From: a virus
Reading direction: 5' to 3' (one strand)
DNA length: 25,568 nt
IMG/VR virus record: IMGVR_UViG_3300037598_000120
Location: 1-25,568 of that record
Numbering within the stretch: the stretch's first letter is position 1; each line of letters opens with the position of its first letter. Under the pieces are notes generated by a model, which was given only the letters and a program-made list of their open reading frames with translations, had not been told where the DNA came from and ran no database searches. Positions 7,119 to 25,568 of the stretch are shown piece after piece. Position numbers and translations under genes: made by a program.

Positions 7119-7202
7119 ATGGTAAGAAAGCAACGTGGTCAAAAGAATAAGAACACTGTCAGACGTCAATTGAAAGAAATTAAGACAAAAGAAACAGCAT
7201 AG
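7119..7202 (+). CDS. highly basic peptide, 27 aa
   Basis: The only gene between early promoters 3 and 4, with AAGGAAATCAAC before the ATG. Of 27 residues about 11 are Lys or Arg (MVRKQRGQKNKNTVRRQLKE). Very basic early peptides can bind RNA, DNA or RNA polymerase; antitermination proteins use such arginine-rich segments. That role is a guess. The private promoter argues that it is expressed. Confidence 0.6.
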   Translation: MVRKQRGQKNKNTVRRQLKEIKTKETA

Positions 7203-12763: not shown

Positions 12764-13434
12764 GGCACTAACTCCAAGCCTAATGATATCCTCCCAGTGA
12801 ATATATTAATCTCCCCCTCTCGCTTATCCAACTTAAACAGGAATTGATGAGGGATATTACCAGTAAAGTCATACACCGTCCCATCTCGTCTTATCTTAAA
12901 GCCCTTAATGATACTTCCGTCATCAAATAACACCTTAGAGTCAATATCGTTATGGTGAACCTCAACGGTAGCGTTTGCTGTTACAGCCCATATAGTCAAA
13001 CCAGCATCACTTAGCGACACCCTGTAGTACTCCTTTCCATCAAGGTCAGAGTATGCACCAGCTTGGTATAACTGAATTACACTCCGTACATTACTAATCT
13101 CATTGCCCGACCTATCTGGTGCTGTAATAGTAAATGTAATCGACATCAGTATTGACATCAATGTAACGACTACCAGCAGTTCGATAATAGTAAACCTACG
13201 CTTCTTGTTTAGGAGGTCTGGCTTCTTAGTCTTTGGTGTCACTTTAACTCTACCTAACTCAGCAGTCACATTCCTATTCTCTCTTACTATGTGTCTTGTA
13301 ATGAAGTATGTACACATCAATGAGTATACCATCATTGCTCCTAACCTCAGTGGACTCTCGCTGAATCCGTATACCGAAAAGGATAGGATTAGGATATTTG
13401 CCATTAGTATTATGCCTGTTATTAACTCTCTCAT
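12760..13434 (-). CDS. pilin-like (GspH/FimT-type pseudopilin) membrane protein
   Basis: 224 residues. It begins with two hydrophobic segments (about 5-23 and 31-48), then a basic linker, then a near-perfect type IV prepilin motif: KKRR (77-80), F81-T-I-I-E85-L-L-V-V-V and a hydrophobic helix to about 103. E85 is the conserved Glu5 of mature pilins. The usual Gly before the cleavage point is Arg here, so prepilin peptidase may not cut. The remaining 120 residues resemble the beta-rich GspH/FimT domain (DDGSIIKGFKIRRDGTVYDF). A pilin-like protein with an extra N-terminal membrane hairpin is unusual in a phage. It might disturb host pili or secretion, for example to exclude pilus-dependent phages; that is inference. 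The start overlaps the upstream stop (TAATG). Confidence 0.7.
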   Translation of the reverse strand: MRELITGIILMANILILSFSVYGFSESPLRLGAMMVYSLMCTYFITRHIVRENRNVTAELGRVKVTPKTKKPDLLNKKRRFTIIELLVVVTLMSILMSITFTITAPDRSGNEISNVRSVIQLYQAGAYSDLDGKEYYRVSLSDAGLTIWAVTANATVEVHHNDIDSKVLFDDGSIIKGFKIRRDGTVYDFTGNIPHQFLFKLDKREGEINIFTGRISLGLELVP

Positions 13435-19468: not shown

Positions 19469-19577
19469 TGCAAGGTATGGGATTCAAACCCATGTCTCCC
19501 GATCCACACGCTAATAAGCGCTGCATTCACGGCAACAGTCTCGTCAGACTCGCAATAAATCACTCTGCCAACCTTGC
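19469..19577 (-). tRNA. tRNA or tRNA-like gene, unusual; possible tRNA-Ser(UGA)
   Basis: The acceptor stem is perfect (GCAAGGT with ACCTTGC, discriminator A, no encoded CCA). D arm GCAG/TTGC and T arm ATGGG, TTTGAAT, CCCAT are normal. An anticodon arm GTTGC, loop CGTGAAT, GCAGC fits with anticodon UGA, but position 33 is G instead of U. A 15-base insertion (hairpin AGTCT-GACG-AGACT, 19550-19537) separates the D arm from it, and the variable region (with CGCT-TATT-AGCG) is long, so the total is 109 bases. It may be a decayed tRNA or a tRNA mimic; the identity is uncertain. Confidence 0.5.
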
Positions 19578-20422: not shown

Positions 20423-20511
20423 AAGCGAAGCGTTAAGCTCGGAGAGCAACGACCAACACTGCCGACCCTCTACACTATATATAATGAGCTAAAGCTCTTA
20501 ACGCTTCGCTT
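20423..20511 (+). repeat. inverted repeat in the terminase leader
   Basis: AAGCGAAGCGTTAAG (20423-20437) is perfectly complementary to CTTAACGCTTCGCTT (20497-20511), 15 bp with a 59-base spacer. GCTCTTA (20494-20500), like boxA of lambda nut sites, overlaps the right arm. TAACGCTTCGCT also occurs near 10635 in the convergence zone's flank. Confidence 0.8.
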
Positions 20512-20556
20512 GACCACCAAAGATTTGATTATAGGTGTATATACATTAAGTTATAC

Positions 20557-20577
20557 TGTTGGCTGAGATGGTTAACA
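20557..20577 (+). promoter_or_regulatory. GAGAT-pentaloop hairpin, boxB-like
   Basis: TGTTGGCT (20557-20564) pairs with GGTTAACA (20570-20577), three pairs being G-U, around loop GAGAT. It lies 26 bases before the small terminase ATG. The same loop recurs in other late leaders. Confidence 0.5.
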
Positions 20578-20602
20578 CAACCCTTAATGTGAGATACATA
20601 AG

Positions 20603-21103
20603 ATGACTAAACAAGAGAGAGTAGTAGCAAAGGAGACTTTGATAGACTTTTTCTATACTGAGGGATGCTCAATACATAAGGCTATTGAAGAGACTAAGGT
20701 TATATCTAAGACTGGCTATTATAAGTGGTTAAAGAGTGATGAAGACTTCGCAGCTAGAGTACTGAGAGGCAAAGACCGTGATGAGATGATGATGGACATT
20801 GCCGAAGACCTAATGATAGAGACAGTTAAGAGAGGTGGAGCACAGGGCGTAAAGGCTGCTATGTATATACTTGATTCCAAAGGCAAGGCTAGAGGCTGGG
20901 GTAAGACTACTGAGATTAAGGTAGAGAAGACCGAGAGAGCTATAGCTGAAATTGTACTTAAAGACACATCACCTGATGCTATTAAGGCACTCACTGAGGC
21001 GGCTAAGCTTAATATTCCAAAGGATGAAGAGGCTGTAACAGCACTATTTAATAAGCGCCTTGGCATAGCTGAAGAGGTGATTATAGATGTCACAGCAGAC
21101 TAA
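20603..21103 (+). CDS. terS: terminase small subunit
   Basis: 166 residues. The N-terminal helix-turn-helix region (AKETLIDFFYTEGCSIHKAI, then SKTGYYKWLKSDEDFAARV, residues about 9-53) and the following acidic helices fit small terminases, which bind the packaging site and assist the large subunit. Its last 17 bases overlap the large terminase gene, the usual order. The start has only a weak GAG ribosome site, possibly controlled by the long structured leader. The symbol is by role. Confidence 0.85.
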   Translation: MTKQERVVAKETLIDFFYTEGCSIHKAIEETKVISKTGYYKWLKSDEDFAARVLRGKDRDEMMMDIAEDLMIETVKRGGAQGVKAAMYILDSKGKARGWGKTTEIKVEKTERAIAEIVLKDTSPDAIKALTEAAKLNIPKDEEAVTALFNKRLGIAEEVIIDVTAD

Positions 21104-22523
21104 GGTAGTATGGAAGGCGTTAGCGGGATCACAGGAACTATTCCTTAATACACCATATAGAGAGACTCTATTGCATGGTAGTAGAGGGGGAGGTAAAACT
21201 GAGACAGCTATAATGGCCTTCGCTAAGCACGTTAACGCTGGCTATGCAGAGCGCTGGAGAGGAGTTATATTCCGTAGAGCCTACAAGGATTTAGAGGATG
21301 TTATATCTAAGTCTAAGCGACTGTTTAAGCAGTTATTCCCTGATGCTAGATTCTTAGCAGGTAAGGGTGACTTAAAGTGGGTATTTGCAACAGGTGAGGA
21401 GTTGATGTTCCGTAAGTTCGATAGCATTGATGACTATGACGGCTTTCACGGACAGGAATTACCCTTTATATTATGGGAAGAGATAACTAACTGGCCTGAT
21501 GATTCGTGCTATGAGATTATGAAGTCCTGTAATAGATCAGTTAAGATGTTAGATGCCTACGGTAAGAAGACTGAGTATACTGATACCATAAAGGTTCCTA
21601 GAATGTACCTAAGCACCACTAACCCATCTGGAGCAGGTCATGGCTGGGTTAAGGATTACTTTATCAGTCAAGGTGATGATTATGAGCCTATTATCAATGA
21701 GGTGGGTGAGGCTAGGTGGCATATACCATCAAGTGTGTTTGAAAATCCATTCATGGATGATGATTACATAAAAGACCTATCAATCATAAAGGATGAGAAT
21801 CTACGAAAGGCTTGGCTATTAGGATCATGGGATATTGTAGCTGGTGGATTGTTTAGTGATGTCTGGAATGAGACAGCTAATACATGTAAGCCGTTTGATA
21901 TACCTGAGAGCTGGAAGATTGATAGATCATTTGACTGGGGATCATCTAAGCCATTCAGTGTTATATGGTATGCAGAGAGTGATGGTACAGACTACATAGA
22001 TGCGGATGGTAACGAAGTAGCCACGATAGCTGGTGATATATTCGCTATACTTGAGTACTATGGAGCTAGTGGCCCTAACGTTGGCTTAAGGCTGACTGCT
22101 AGAGCTATTGCTATTGAGATACGGGACTATGAGATGAATCACCCATTACTTAAGGGTAGGAACGTTGTAGCAGGCCCCGCAGACTCGCAGATATATACTG
22201 TAGAGAATGGTAGTTCTGTAGCAACCTCAATGGAGAAGATTGGTATCTATTGGCTTAGAGCTGATAAGTCTTCTGGTAGTAGAGTTGCAGGGTGGGAGGT
22301 CATCAGAGAGAAGCTAGACAATGGACATAACGGCGAAGGCTTACCCAAGCTGGTTATATTCAGAGGTGGTGGATGTAAAGATCTCTTAAGATTATTGCCT
22401 GTAGCTCCTAGAGATGCGGTTAAGCTTGATGATATTGATACTGACTCCGAGGACCACAATTTGGATAGTCTTAGATACAGATGCCGCAAAAGACCGGTTG
22501 GGAGAGGCTGTAGACAGCTTTAG
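21087..22523 (+). CDS. terL: terminase large subunit
   Basis: 478 residues. ATPase domain: Walker A GSRGGGKT (31-38), Walker B LPFILWEE (125-132) and coupling motif STTNPSG (176-182). Nuclease domain: FDWG (D283), GPADSQIY (D366) and EDHNLDSLRY (455-464, with D460), the three acidic positions that hold the metals for DNA cutting. It pumps DNA into the prohead and makes the terminal cuts. Length is typical. The arginine-rich end (RYRCRKRP) is usual for the family. Start overlaps the small subunit. Confidence 0.95.
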   Translation: MSQQTKVVWKALAGSQELFLNTPYRETLLHGSRGGGKTETAIMAFAKHVNAGYAERWRGVIFRRAYKDLEDVISKSKRLFKQLFPDARFLAGKGDLKWVFATGEELMFRKFDSIDDYDGFHGQELPFILWEEITNWPDDSCYEIMKSCNRSVKMLDAYGKKTEYTDTIKVPRMYLSTTNPSGAGHGWVKDYFISQGDDYEPIINEVGEARWHIPSSVFENPFMDDDYIKDLSIIKDENLRKAWLLGSWDIVAGGLFSDVWNETANTCKPFDIPESWKIDRSFDWGSSKPFSVIWYAESDGTDYIDADGNEVATIAGDIFAILEYYGASGPNVGLRLTARAIAIEIRDYEMNHPLLKGRNVVAGPADSQIYTVENGSSVATSMEKIGIYWLRADKSSGSRVAGWEVIREKLDNGHNGEGLPKLVIFRGGGCKDLLRLLPVAPRDAVKLDDIDTDSEDHNLDSLRYRCRKRPVGRGCRQL

Positions 22524-22550
22524 TAAAATAACTTTAAAGGAGTACATACA

Positions 22551-24095
22551 ATGGCTAACTTTTTTTCAAGTAGCAACAGTAGTACAGCAACTAATGATGA
22601 TGGTTCACAGATAGATAGCCGTCATCCTTCTTATATAGCAATGACAGAAGACTATATGCTGATCAATACCATTCTTGGTGGATATAAGGAGATGCGCAAT
22701 GCAGGCGAGACGTACTTACCAAGGTTCAGCAAGGAGAGTGATACCTCATACACTAATAGGAAGAGTAGAACCTATCTAAACCCGTCATTCAGTGTTGCCG
22801 TTGAGTCGCATAGCTCTAAGCCCTTCAGTAGGCCTATAACGATCGAAGGACTTAGTGAAGATCCTAGACTTAGTGGTCTTGCTAAGAATACAGATGGTGA
22901 GGGTAATGACGCCACTGAGTTTGCTAAGCGAGTGTTTGTAGATGGCGATCAGTACGGCATGAGTCACATATTAGCTGACTATACAGCCAGTGAAGCATCA
23001 AGTAAGGCTGATGAAGCTGGTGATAGTGCTAGACTCGTACATGTTAAGTGTCTTGATCTATTTAACTGGGATAGAGACGGCGCTGGACTTAGTGAAATTA
23101 GATACCACAGATCAGCTACGGTTGCTAAGGGCAAGTTCGGTAAGCAACAAGTTAGACAGGTAGTTAGATGGACTCGCGATAGCTGGGCAGTATATCAAGC
23201 TAACTCAGAAGACAAAGATAGCGTAAAGAGTCAGAAAGATCAGAACGATGAGAAGATTAATAAGGATGACGGCAGTAAATGGACTATGGTTGATGCTGGT
23301 AGAAACTCATTAGGCTTCATACCCCTAACTACTGTGTATTTTAAGCGTACGGGTTTCATGGAAGCTATGCCGCCTAACATAGAGCTGGCTGAGTTAGTCC
23401 TAGAGCACTATCAGGACATGAGTGATCAGAAGAGTTTAGAGAAGATCTCTAGAGTCGCTATCATGACAGCTAGTGGTTACGATCCTCAAGAGCTTGATGG
23501 TTTTACTATTGGCGCACTCAATCTACTTGAGTCAACTAATATAGAGGCTAAACTCAATATCGTAGAACACTCAGGAAGCGCGGTAGCTATAGGTAGAGGA
23601 GCCTTAAAGATCTTAGAGGATAAGATGGAGGAGTTAAGCCTTAAGCCTGAATTAAACCGTACTAGCGGCGATGTGACAGCTTCTGAGGTTATAAGCAATG
23701 CATTCAATAGTCAGTCTGATCTAATGAGTTGGACTAACGCCACTGAAGAAGGTATGCGTGAGGCGTTTAGAATGGCCTACAAGTACATAAAGGCCGATGA
23801 TAGTGATCTAATCATCTCTGTTTATAAGGACTTTACAATAGCTGGCAATGTTAGTGATCTAGGCGCTTTGACGTTACTGTATACATCAGGTGCTCTTGAT
23901 GCTGAGACGCTGTTGTTTGAGTTTAAACGTAGAGGTAGTCTTGATATATCACACGACATAGCCAAGATCATTGAGAGAGCTACAGCAGAGGCTGAGAAGA
24001 AGATGCAGGTCGCAATGACATTAGCACAAGCAAGCAAACCGGAGGCCCCAAGTGAAAGTAATTCTAGTTCTAATAGCAAGTCTAAGTCTGAGTAG
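22551..24095 (+). CDS. portal protein (DUF4055 type)
   Basis: 514 residues behind AAGGAG. It shows the DUF4055 pattern: RKSRTYLNPSFSVAVESHSS, KPFSRP, FVDGDQYGMSHILADY, LFNWDRDGAG, then IPLTTVYFKRTGF, IELAELVLEHYQDMSDQKSL. Portals form the 12-mer ring at the head vertex through which DNA passes. It follows the large terminase, as usual. The C-terminus is Ser/Lys-rich (PSESNSSSNSKSKSE), and its last 44 bases overlap a small lipoprotein gene in another frame. Confidence 0.9.
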   Translation: MANFFSSSNSSTATNDDGSQIDSRHPSYIAMTEDYMLINTILGGYKEMRNAGETYLPRFSKESDTSYTNRKSRTYLNPSFSVAVESHSSKPFSRPITIEGLSEDPRLSGLAKNTDGEGNDATEFAKRVFVDGDQYGMSHILADYTASEASSKADEAGDSARLVHVKCLDLFNWDRDGAGLSEIRYHRSATVAKGKFGKQQVRQVVRWTRDSWAVYQANSEDKDSVKSQKDQNDEKINKDDGSKWTMVDAGRNSLGFIPLTTVYFKRTGFMEAMPPNIELAELVLEHYQDMSDQKSLEKISRVAIMTASGYDPQELDGFTIGALNLLESTNIEAKLNIVEHSGSAVAIGRGALKILEDKMEELSLKPELNRTSGDVTASEVISNAFNSQSDLMSWTNATEEGMREAFRMAYKYIKADDSDLIISVYKDFTIAGNVSDLGALTLLYTSGALDAETLLFEFKRRGSLDISHDIAKIIERATAEAEKKMQVAMTLAQASKPEAPSESNSSSNSKSKSE

Positions 24096-24195
24096 CTGTA
24101 AGACTACAGAGATATTTATAATTAATAGCGACAACGTATGTATCGAGGTAATCACCACAGGATCAGATTTAGATCTAAAGGGAAAGTTAAAATAG
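24052..24195 (+). CDS. small lipoprotein overlapping the portal gene
   Basis: GTG 24052 lies six bases after GGAGG, inside the portal's C-terminal codons in another frame. The 47 residues start MKVILVLIASLSLSSC: a basic end, a hydrophobic core and the lipobox L-S-S-C16, a classic signal-peptidase II site. The mature part is 32 residues (CKTTEIFIINSDNVCIEVIT and a Lys-rich end). It should be an envelope lipoprotein. Phage lipoproteins of this size act in superinfection exclusion (T5 Llp type) or lysis (spanin), which is the inference here. The stop is 2 bases before a promoter. Confidence 0.72.
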   Translation: MKVILVLIASLSLSSCKTTEIFIINSDNVCIEVITTGSDLDLKGKLK

Positions 24196-24197
24196 AT

Positions 24198-24228
24198 TTG
24201 ACATATACTCTTAACCGTGTATTATAAG
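24198..24228 (+). promoter_or_regulatory. late-region promoter
   Basis: Perfect -35 TTGACA (24198-24203). The -10 is one of the overlapping TATTAT/TTATAA/TATAAG (24220-24228), with spacing 16-19 bp. It reads the 36-aa gene. Confidence 0.7.
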
Positions 24229-24234
24229 ACTGTA

Positions 24235-24245
24235 GCCGAGATGGC
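24235..24245 (+). promoter_or_regulatory. GAGAT-pentaloop hairpin, short stem
   Basis: GCC (24235-24237), GAGAT, GGC (24243-24245). Only three pairs, but the loop and the CCGAGATGG core match the other late leaders. It is at or just after the expected transcription start. Confidence 0.35.
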
Positions 24246-24274
24246 AAACTTATAATACATGAAAGGAGAGATTT

Positions 24275-24385
24275 ATGTACGGAATCAGATTTACAAACAG
24301 AGCAACAGGTAAGATGGTCAAGAGAAGTCAAGTAGGTCTTATAGACAGAGTAAAGCTTGGCATTGGCTTGATATTTAACCGATAG
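24275..24385 (+). CDS. basic peptide, 36 aa
   Basis: ATG behind AAAGGAGAGATTT, with its own promoter and a terminator after it, so it looks like a stand-alone gene. Basic (MYGIRFTNRATGKMVKRSQV) with a hydrophobic C-terminal third (GLIDRVKLGIGLIFNR). It could bind nucleic acid or the membrane. It sits between portal and scaffold genes, where structural operons rarely carry such a unit. Unknown function. Confidence 0.65.
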   Translation: MYGIRFTNRATGKMVKRSQVGLIDRVKLGIGLIFNR

Positions 24386-24402
24386 AAGAAAGAAAGTACA
24401 CG

Positions 24403-24447
24403 AGCCCCTATGTATTCAGTTTGTCGCTGCGATATAGGGGCTTTTTT
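24403..24447 (+). terminator. intrinsic terminator between the small peptide and scaffold genes
   Basis: AGCCCCTAT (24403-24411) pairs with ATAGGGGCT (24434-24442), loop 22 bases, then six T. It would cut late transcription before the scaffold and capsid genes unless bypassed. Confidence 0.85.
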
Positions 24448-24453
24448 ATTAAT

Positions 24454-24466
24454 GACCGAGATGGTC
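24454..24466 (+). promoter_or_regulatory. GAGAT-pentaloop hairpin, copy 1 of scaffold leader
   Basis: GACC (24454-24457), GAGAT, GGTC (24463-24466): four Watson-Crick pairs. It follows the terminator's T run by 6 bases. Confidence 0.5.
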
Positions 24467-24471
24467 GCAAC

Positions 24472-24486
24472 GAAACGAGATGTTTC
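24472..24486 (+). promoter_or_regulatory. GAGAT-pentaloop hairpin, copy 2 of scaffold leader
   Basis: GAAAC (24472-24476), GAGAT, GTTTC (24482-24486): five pairs and five loop bases, the exact size of lambda boxB (15 nt). It ends 12 bases before the scaffold ATG and touches its AAGGA site. Confidence 0.55.
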
Positions 24487-24498
24487 AAGGAACACACA

Positions 24499-25320
24499 AT
24501 GGCACTAGAAAGCGTACTAGCAAATTTAGATGGTTTAGATGACTCACTGAAAGCACATTACTCAGAGGTTGCAGATGTTGGCTTCGTACTACAGACAAAT
24601 AATTTCGTCACGGACAATGTATCATATGGGAACGTTGACACTAAGAATCTCAAGTCTGCTTTAGACAGTGAGCGCACTGCACGTAAGGAAGCTGAGAGAG
24701 GTGTACAAGGCCTTGAAGCCTACACTTCACTAGGTACAGCAGAAGAGATCACAGCTAAACTCAACACAGCAAGCGATGTCGGTACTAAGGTAGATGAACG
24801 CATTGAATCACTTAGAACCGAATATGAAGGTAAGCTAACTACAGCAGCAGCTACGGCAACAGAAGCCCTAGACGGTATGAAGAAAGCTAACCACTCACGA
24901 GAAGTAACCGCATTACTTAATAGTGTCGCTGGTGATGTAGTTGAAGGAGAAGGCCCTCAGAACTACTTAACAGGCATCCTTAAGTCTATGACAGCCCTTG
25001 ACGCTCTTGGTAACGTTATAGTGGTTAACCCTGATGGCTCGCCAAGACAGACCTTAGCGGTTGACTCAGTGGCTAATATGTCACTCGAGGAGGCTTGGGG
25101 TATGATTAAAGGTGACCCTACTCATGGCTTTGCAATTAAAGCAAGCGGCGCTAGTGGGTCAGGTTCGACAGGCAGTAGTGGTGGTAGTGCCAATATAAGC
25201 GGCACACCAACTAATGCAGCAGACTGGAACGGAATGAGTTCAGTAGCTCAGACAGCGTTCTATAATGCTAATCCTGCCAGAGCAACCGAGCTAGCAATAG
25301 CTGGCGCTAAAGTACAGTAG
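24499..25320 (+). CDS. head scaffolding protein
   Basis: 273 residues from ATG 24499, with AAGGA 7 bases upstream; a longer frame reaching back into the terminator is rejected. The opening (LDGLDDSLKAHYSEVADVGF) and the following charged coiled coil (LKSALDSERTARKEAERGVQ, with KVDERIESLRTEYEGKL later) match phage scaffold proteins, which guide capsid assembly and then leave. The C-terminus has a Gly/Ser linker (SGASGSGSTGSSGGSANI) and a short Ala-rich end that may bind the capsid. Position between portal and capsid genes agrees. No protease motif is seen. Confidence 0.8.
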   Translation: MALESVLANLDGLDDSLKAHYSEVADVGFVLQTNNFVTDNVSYGNVDTKNLKSALDSERTARKEAERGVQGLEAYTSLGTAEEITAKLNTASDVGTKVDERIESLRTEYEGKLTTAAATATEALDGMKKANHSREVTALLNSVAGDVVEGEGPQNYLTGILKSMTALDALGNVIVVNPDGSPRQTLAVDSVANMSLEEAWGMIKGDPTHGFAIKASGASGSGSTGSSGGSANISGTPTNAADWNGMSSVAQTAFYNANPARATELAIAGAKVQ

Positions 25321-25539: not shown

Positions 25540-25568
25540 ATGGCCTCAACTATTGCAGCACAATTTGT
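25540..25568 (+). CDS. start of probable major capsid protein
   Basis: ATG 25540 follows AAGGAGCCTCACAA. Only MASTIAAQF is inside the window. Position after the scaffold, a separate terminator-promoter pair (as for a highly expressed gene) and the strong ribosome site point to the major capsid protein; the sequence itself is too short to prove it. Confidence 0.55.

What the first reader, a model, noticed from the sequence alone, without database searches (positions are those of the whole stretch)
20557..24486. Repeated GAGAT-pentaloop hairpins in late leaders: a possible boxB-like antitermination system
Four leader sites carry the loop GAGAT closed by different but complementary stems: TGTTGGCT/GGTTAACA (20557), GCC/GGC (24235), GACC/GGTC (24454) and GAAAC/GTTTC (24472). 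Loop constant with changing stems is the mark of a selected RNA structure. The last one is a 5-bp stem with 5-nt purine-rich loop, the same size as lambda boxB bound by N protein; GAGA is also a GNRA tetraloop with one extra base. Terminators interrupt the late region (24403, 25331), so a read-through mechanism would be useful, and a boxA-like GCTCTTA lies in the terminase leader. The reader protein could be a small basic peptide such as 7119-7202; that last link is a guess.
Basis: partly seen in the sequence, partly recalled or inferred. Interest (0 to 1): 0.85.

Follow-up and report, generated by a model that had tools for sequence, protein, structure and literature searches.

The report
Constant-loop RNA hairpins before phage head genes
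Short RNA hairpins whose loop is always the same but whose stems change sit just in front of the head-building genes of this phage and of many distantly related phages, and they are probably docking sites through which an unidentified protein controls how much head protein is made.

Summary
The window has five GAGAT-loop hairpins, all in late leaders (terS two, small ORF one, scaffold two). A relative (L004; TerS 38%, scaffold 43% identical) keeps tandem GAGAT hairpins at terS and scaffold, mostly with different but complementary stems; 0 of 2000 shuffles match. In YuA-like phages an unbiased ranking of all loops gives G-N-G-A-N pentaloops as the strongly enriched hairpin loops in MCP and scaffold leaders (57/60 MCP leaders), not in coding sequence, with strong covariation. 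Queuovirinae carry the same arrangement with ANGG tetraloops. No Rfam family matches.

The boxB-antitermination reading is only partly supported. The loop is GNRA plus one base, but boxA is not conserved, stems vary freely, and the scaffold hairpins lie after the terminator, 0-10 nt from the scaffold Shine-Dalgarno in about 15 phages. In terS the second hairpin ends at the start codon. I favour a translational operator read by a phage protein (0.5) over a nut/put-like element (0.25).

The parts
20557..20577 (+). terS leader hairpin 1, TGTTGGCT[GAGAT]GGTTAACA, loop 20565-20569
   Evidence: sequence; scan; MFE fold forms it
20583..20602 (+). terS leader hairpin 2, CTT(A)ATGT[GAGAT]ACATAAG, ends at the base before the terS ATG (20603); its loop holds the only SD-like bases
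   Evidence: sequence; scan; same place in L004 AATTGT[GAGAT]GCAATT|ATG
20543..20590 (+). outer stem ACATTAAG 20543-20550 / CTTAATGT 20583-20590 around hairpin 1; excludes hairpin 2 (shares its 5' arm)
   Evidence: sequence; MFE prefers the outer stem
24198..24225 (+). sigma70-like promoter TTGACA-16-TATTAT (11/12) just upstream of the small-ORF hairpin
24235..24245 (+). small-ORF leader hairpin GCC[GAGAT]GGC inside an inverted repeat TGTATTATAAG 24218-24228 / CTTATAATACA 24249-24259; not kept in L004
   Evidence: sequence; fold
24402..24447 (+). intrinsic terminator between small ORF and scaffold leader; counterpart in L004 near 13293-13347
   Evidence: sequence; fold
24453..24467 (+). scaffold leader hairpin 1, TGACC[GAGAT]GGTCG
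   Evidence: L004 13355-13369 identical stem
24472..24486 (+). scaffold leader hairpin 2, GAAAC[GAGAT]GTTTC; directly followed by SD AAGGA 24487-24491
   Evidence: L004 CACC[GAGAT]GGTG followed by AAGGA
20603..21103 (+). terminase small subunit, by position and relation to L004; no family hit
21087..22523 (+). terminase large subunit
   Evidence: phrog_979/phrog_2
22551..24095 (+). portal protein
   Evidence: phrog_145 3e-80
24275..24385 (+). 36-aa basic ORF, counterpart in L004 13177-13251
24499..25320 (+). head scaffolding protein
   Evidence: phrog_206 6e-21

Best explanation
The GAGAT hairpins are copies of a cis-acting RNA operator in the 5' leaders of head-assembly genes. Shown: the hairpins are real, conserved by pairing rather than sequence, have an invariant G-N-G-A-N loop across one group of phages (GAGAT in this phage), often come in tandem, are concentrated at terS, scaffold and major capsid genes, and end 0-10 nt before the scaffold Shine-Dalgarno (or, at terS, at the start codon). 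Inferred: a phage-encoded protein recognises the loop and backbone, not the stem sequence, and when bound hinders 30S loading (or alters leader stability), so that head proteins are made in the right amount or at the right time. Tandem copies would give cooperative binding. The best candidate reader is a head protein acting on its own mRNA, above all the scaffold protein of family phrog_206, common to nearly all phages seen with the hairpins while their capsid families differ. Existence of a selected RNA element: about 0.97. Translational operator: about 0.5. Scaffold protein as reader: about 0.2.
For: Covariation on sites chosen by loop only (69 GTGAT sites: 79.7% vs 48.4% paired, score 0.745 vs 0.203, slides at most 0.28) and on the GAGAT sites. 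Unbiased loop ranking and coding control: closing pair Watson-Crick 96% in leaders vs 13% in coding for GTGAT; GNAAN, GNYAN and non-G-first loops at background. Hairpin 3' end to scaffold SD 0-10 nt and to ATG 12-22 nt in window, L004, LKO4, CN1, PaMx74, RcRudolph, 9g, SE1, PSTCR4, BA3, R29Z, CAjan, NP1, 1.117.O; EC151 and K4PH164 GTTGC[ATGG]GCAAC has one base before GGAG. terS hairpin 2 ends at the ATG in both window and L004. Whole-record scans find few other sites. phrog_206 scaffold shared, capsid phrog_212 or phrog_247.
Against: MCP-leader hairpins lie 28-119 nt from the ATG (median about 50), too far for simple SD occlusion. A sigma70-like promoter 10-42 nt upstream of the first hairpin in 13 of 52 MCP leaders (0 of 52 in control) fits a promoter-proximal transcription element equally well. 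No reader protein is identified. phrog_206-type scaffold phages 83AMN and MMDA13 lack the scaffold-leader hairpin and Nitrincola phage 1M3-16 has only a distant terminator-like one.
Confidence: 0.5

Rival explanations
1. Nut- or put-like element: the hairpins, at the 5' end of late transcripts, load an antitermination factor or act on RNA polymerase directly, so that the terminators between scaffold, capsid and tail genes are passed late in infection.
For: GNRA-plus-one loop resembles boxB pentaloops; GNRA-like pentaloops are known protein docking sites (PMC12550061). Hairpins promoter-proximal in MCP leaders. Terminators in the late region. Tandem hairpins separated by 0-5 nt in several leaders.
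Against: boxA not enriched; stems not conserved; scaffold-leader hairpins lie after the terminator and keep a fixed distance to the SD; hairpins repeated before individual head genes rather than once per operon.
Confidence: 0.25
2. Leader mRNA stability or processing element: the hairpins protect 5' ends or are entry sites for a nuclease or for a host RNA-binding protein.
For: Near 5' ends of head transcripts where promoters can be recognised; stems short but stable.
Against: A plain stabiliser needs no invariant loop; loops are constant within a phage but differ between lineages (GNGAN vs ANGG), which points to a coevolving phage factor.
Confidence: 0.15
3. DNA-level site (protein binding, late promoter, packaging) that happens to be palindromic.
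For: Some inverted repeats overlap promoters (24218-24259 in the window; 9g, EC151 and PSTCR4 MCP leaders).
Against: Only pairing and the loop are kept; every stem position uses several pair types and the sites are oriented with the gene.
Confidence: 0.04
4. Loop pairs with the 16S rRNA 3' tail (GGUGAUCC complements GGAUCACC) and acts as an accessory ribosome site.
For: The common YuA-like site CCGG[GTGAT]CCGG contains the complement of the 16S tail (tail sequence from general knowledge).
Against: GAGAT, GCGAT, GTGAC and ANGG loops do not pair with it, and stem bases vary.
Confidence: 0.03

Closest known systems
Lambdoid boxB RNA (nut sites of lambda, P22, phi21)
   Same: Short stem, purine-rich pentaloop of GNRA type, in phage leaders, probably read by a phage protein
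   Different: boxB loops are GAAAA/GAAGA (lambda, from general knowledge) and GACAA (P22); here A is invariant at loop position 4 and position 5 varies (GNRA then an extra base, the n5-n6 insertion class of PMC12550061, vs n3-n4 for P22). No boxA, stems vary, sites next to the SD of single head genes, tandem
HK022 put sites (from general knowledge)
   Same: Two adjacent stem-loops near the start of a transcript
   Different: put is early and protein-independent; a put comparison was not run here
RNA-phage coat-protein operator hairpin (MS2 type; from general knowledge)
   Same: Hairpin at the ribosome site, loop-specific; a structural protein as repressor is the model I favour
   Different: dsDNA tailed phages; several genes; tandem copies; repressor not identified
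P22 scaffolding protein autoregulation (Wyckoff & Casjens 1985, cited in PMC5744158)
   Same: Precedent that a scaffold protein controls its own gene's expression
   Different: No hairpin operator of this kind known to me; the P22 paper was not read here and its scaffold was not compared with phrog_206
Mycobacteriophage SAS/ESAS start-associated sequences (PMC3203893)
   Same: Repeated leader elements just upstream of phage start codons, with inverted repeats, function unknown
   Different: SAS/ESAS conserve sequence; here only loop and pairing are conserved, and the genes are head genes

Membership tests
Lambda-type nut/boxB | Short hairpin with GNRA-like pentaloop | tested here: inconclusive
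   Loop G-N-G-A-N fits GNRA+1 by sequence; three-dimensional fold not determined; differs from known boxB loops
Lambda-type nut/boxB | boxA upstream of the hairpin | tested here: not met
   GCTCTT sense 4, shuffles 2.5; GCTCTTA 0 in 58 leaders; window match at 20494 not kept in L004 terS leader
Lambda-type nut/boxB | Conserved stem sequence contacted by an arginine-rich peptide | tested here: not met
   All stem positions vary by compensatory changes
Lambda-type nut/boxB | N-like arginine-rich antiterminator encoded by the phage | tested here: inconclusive
   Basic peptides exist (7119-7202; 24275-24385) but only the second has a counterpart in L004, none clear in six other phages
Lambda-type nut/boxB | Terminator read-through dependent on the site | not testable with these tools
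   needs an experiment
Translational operator hairpin (MS2-like mode of action) | Hairpin at or adjacent to the ribosome binding site | tested here: met
   scaffold: 0-10 nt to SD; terS: abuts ATG; but not met for MCP leaders (28-119 nt to ATG)
Translational operator hairpin (MS2-like mode of action) | Recognition by loop and pairing | tested here: met
   covariation with invariant loop
Translational operator hairpin (MS2-like mode of action) | Repressor protein binds and blocks initiation | not testable with these tools
   no reader identified
HK022 put | Two stem-loops acting directly on RNA polymerase without a phage protein | not tested
   only general resemblance
Any Rfam 15 family | Covariance-model match | tested here: not met
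   window at E up to 1 and nine loci at gathering scores: only tRNA plus one chance-level hit elsewhere

The most novel reading that the evidence does not exclude
Head-gene leaders of several tailed-phage lineages (YuA-like/Mesyanzhinovviridae, Queuovirinae and the unclassified window lineage) share an uncatalogued operator system in which the scaffold protein (phrog_206) binds hairpins with a lineage-specific loop code (GNGAN or ANGG/AUGR) and autoregulates terS, scaffold and capsid synthesis, i.e. capsid stoichiometry is set by RNA binding of an assembly protein.
Probability: 0.18. Interest if true: 0.88.

Novelty: new variant of a known kind. Interest (0 to 1): 0.76.

Why it matters
It is a strongly covarying, apparently undescribed cis-regulatory RNA that also occurs in cultivable phages (9g, CAjan, EC151, LKO4, CN1), so a model found in one metagenomic window can be tested at once in laboratory strains. 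The loop rule also gives an annotation signal for head-gene leaders in uncultured phages.

Tried and rejected
Collection scan for CCGAGATGG...CGAGATG and for ATGACCGAGATGGTCG...GAGATG: besides the known relatives, the hits read (L028/L097, L140) were coding coincidences in GC-rich phages. GAGAT alone is not enriched. Portal scan found no further relatives; genome-contig scan found none. The first five Queuovirinae regions had no GAGAT hairpins at these leaders; ranking repeated loops in their leaders exposed ACGG/ATGG instead. A hairpin near 1.9 kb conserved in LKO4 and CN1 is antisense inside the helicase gene. boxA search negative. 16S-tail complementarity rejected because other loops lack it. 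Literature: papers on 9g and Mesyanzhinovviridae do not mention such hairpins; the structured-RNA survey of 2010 shows nothing alike in the passages found; subscription papers (for example the YuA genome paper) could not be read. Some stem_loop features are annotated in the LKO4 GenBank record without comment. No structure prediction of candidate readers was run, since it would not show RNA binding.
Full report
What was claimed. Four leader hairpins with loop GAGAT and different stems, read as a boxB-like antitermination system.

The observation. All four are present at the stated coordinates, and a fifth (20583-20602, one bulged A) lies against the terS start codon. The word GAGAT is at chance frequency in the window (82 vs 73), but in the late intergenic stretches it is by far the most frequent pentaloop (5 hairpins; next best 2). 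Repeating the count on dinucleotide shuffles of the leaders, with any loop allowed to win, gives 0/2000 as high for the window and 0/2000 for window plus relative.

Setting. The window is an IMG/VR record of 25,568 bases. Late genes: terS 20603, TerL 21087 (phrog_979/2), portal 22551 (phrog_145), a 36-aa ORF 24275, scaffold 24499 (phrog_206), and by position the start of the capsid gene at 25540. TerL is nearest to Queuovirinae (45%); the portal is nearest to YuA-like phages and relatives (up to about 30%).

Close relative. One related species was found (L001-L004; TerL 73%, portal 54%, scaffold 43%, TerS 38% identical). It keeps tandem GAGAT hairpins at terS (ATATGC[GAGAT]GC(T)ATAT and AATTGT[GAGAT]GCAATT|ATG) and at scaffold (TGACC[GAGAT]GGTCG and CACC[GAGAT]GGTG, then AAGGA), again after a terminator. 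On the nine sites of both phages 91.7% of cells of a 4-bp stem pair (57.6% in shuffles) and all four pairs show double changes. The 24235 hairpin is not kept there, so it is the weakest member, although it sits just downstream of a good promoter match.

Distant relatives, unbiased. Leaders of LKO4, CN1, PaMx74 and RcRudolph show hairpins, mostly in tandem, with loops GTGAT, GTGAG, GTGAC, GCGAT. Eighty further loci were fetched by capsid protein. In 60 distinct MCP leaders, ranking every 4-, 5- and 6-base loop by strict hairpins (four Watson-Crick pairs) puts GTGAT first (23 of 57 occurrences; base rate 0.9%), then GCGAT and GTGAC; in scaffold leaders GTGAT 17/23, GCGAT 9/15, GTGAG 7/15 (base 1.2%). 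57 of 60 MCP leaders have at least one GNGAN hairpin and 30 have two or three. In the neighbouring coding sequence the same words do not pair (GTGAT: 0 of 112 with four pairs against 39 of 79 in leaders), and loops differing at the fixed positions (GNAAN, GNYAN, HNGAN, GNGBN) stay at background in the leaders. On 69 distinct GTGAT sites chosen without regard to pairing, all five pairs covary and the covariation score is 0.745 against 0.203 shuffled and at most 0.276 slid. The sites are related by descent, so the counts are not independent, but the slid control keeps that relatedness and the coding control keeps composition.

A second loop class. In Queuovirinae and allies the same positions carry tetraloops ACGG (9g, SE1, CAjan) or ATGG/ATGA (EC151, K4PH164, PSTCR4, BA3, NP1, 1.117.O; R7M as the pentaloop CATGG). 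Unbiased ranking of 65 metagenomic relatives gives ATGG first in scaffold leaders (27 hairpins in 21 loci) and in MCP leaders (11). In 9g and BA3 one of the hairpins is itself followed by a T-run.

Where the hairpins sit. The hairpin end lies 0-10 nt before the scaffold SD in the window, L004, four YuA-like or allied phages and most Queuovirinae examined. At terS in window and L004 the second hairpin ends at the ATG and its loop has the only SD-like bases. In MCP leaders the hairpins lie 28-119 nt from the ATG and, where a strict promoter match exists, 10-42 nt after the -10 box (13/52 vs 0/52 in coding control). Whole-record scans of six phages show no comparable concentration elsewhere; LKO4 and CN1 have about twenty GNGAN matches each at this cut-off in GC-rich DNA, mostly single.

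Mechanism. The invariant loop plus freely changing stems argues for recognition by a protein (inference); the loop class changes with lineage, so a phage protein is likelier than a host one (inference). Position at the SD of scaffold and the start of terS favours control of translation initiation. The MCP position and the promoter proximity keep a transcriptional (nut/put-like) role alive. The lambda form of that role fails two defining tests here (boxA, fixed stem). The scaffold family phrog_206 is shared by window, L004, YuA-like and Queuovirinae phages while capsid families differ (phrog_212, phrog_247), and a scaffold that regulates its own gene has a precedent in P22 (reference in PMC5744158; that paper was not read). 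Against it, 83AMN and MMDA13 encode a related scaffold but have no scaffold-leader hairpin. In the window terS leader the outer stem 20543-20550/20583-20590 and hairpin 2 are mutually exclusive, so a conformational switch is possible (not tested).

Known or new. No Rfam 15 match. Open literature on 9g and on the YuA family does not mention the hairpins; closed literature could not be checked, so prior description cannot be excluded. GNRA-like pentaloops as protein sites are well known. I rate it a new variant of a known kind: a leader RNA operator family not yet catalogued.

Noticed in passing
window 24275-24385; L004 13177-13251: Short basic ORF with its own promoter and terminator between portal and scaffold, N-terminal half conserved (MYGIRFTNRATGKMVKRS / MYSLRFVSLKTGKIVKRK); possible alternative RNA-binding peptide.
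   Followed up: partly
window 20543-20602: Outer stem ACATTAAG/CTTAATGT and terS hairpin 2 use the same strand and exclude each other: possible RNA switch at the terS start codon.
   Followed up: no
window 19469-19577 (-); L004 8189-8258 (-): Rfam finds a tRNA on the minus strand; the window copy spans 109 bases against 70 in L004 (an insertion), and ARAGORN does not call the window copy.
   Followed up: no
L132 9205, L130 11226: In 9g and BA3 a constant-loop hairpin (ACGG / ATGG) is followed by a T-run, so a terminator-like hairpin itself carries the lineage loop; BA3's lies right after a promoter match.
   Followed up: no
L341 and L342 scaffold leaders: GGA[GTGAT]TCC overlaps the SD of the scaffold gene in a Stenotrophomonas and an Alteromonas phage that otherwise use ATGN loops; same 11-mer as hairpin 1 of many YuA-like MCP leaders.
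   Followed up: no
L152 5917-6059: Nitrincola phage 1M3-16 has one long terminator-like hairpin with a GAGAT loop upstream of its phrog_206 scaffold gene.
   Followed up: no
L144, L129, L132 MCP leaders: Inverted repeats whose left arm lies in the promoter and whose right arm lies just downstream (for example GACCGTGCTTC...GAAGCATGGTC in EC151): possible DNA operators.
   Followed up: no
window 20603-25320: Mosaic head module: TerL closest to Queuovirinae, portal (DUF4055) closest to YuA-like phages.
   Followed up: partly
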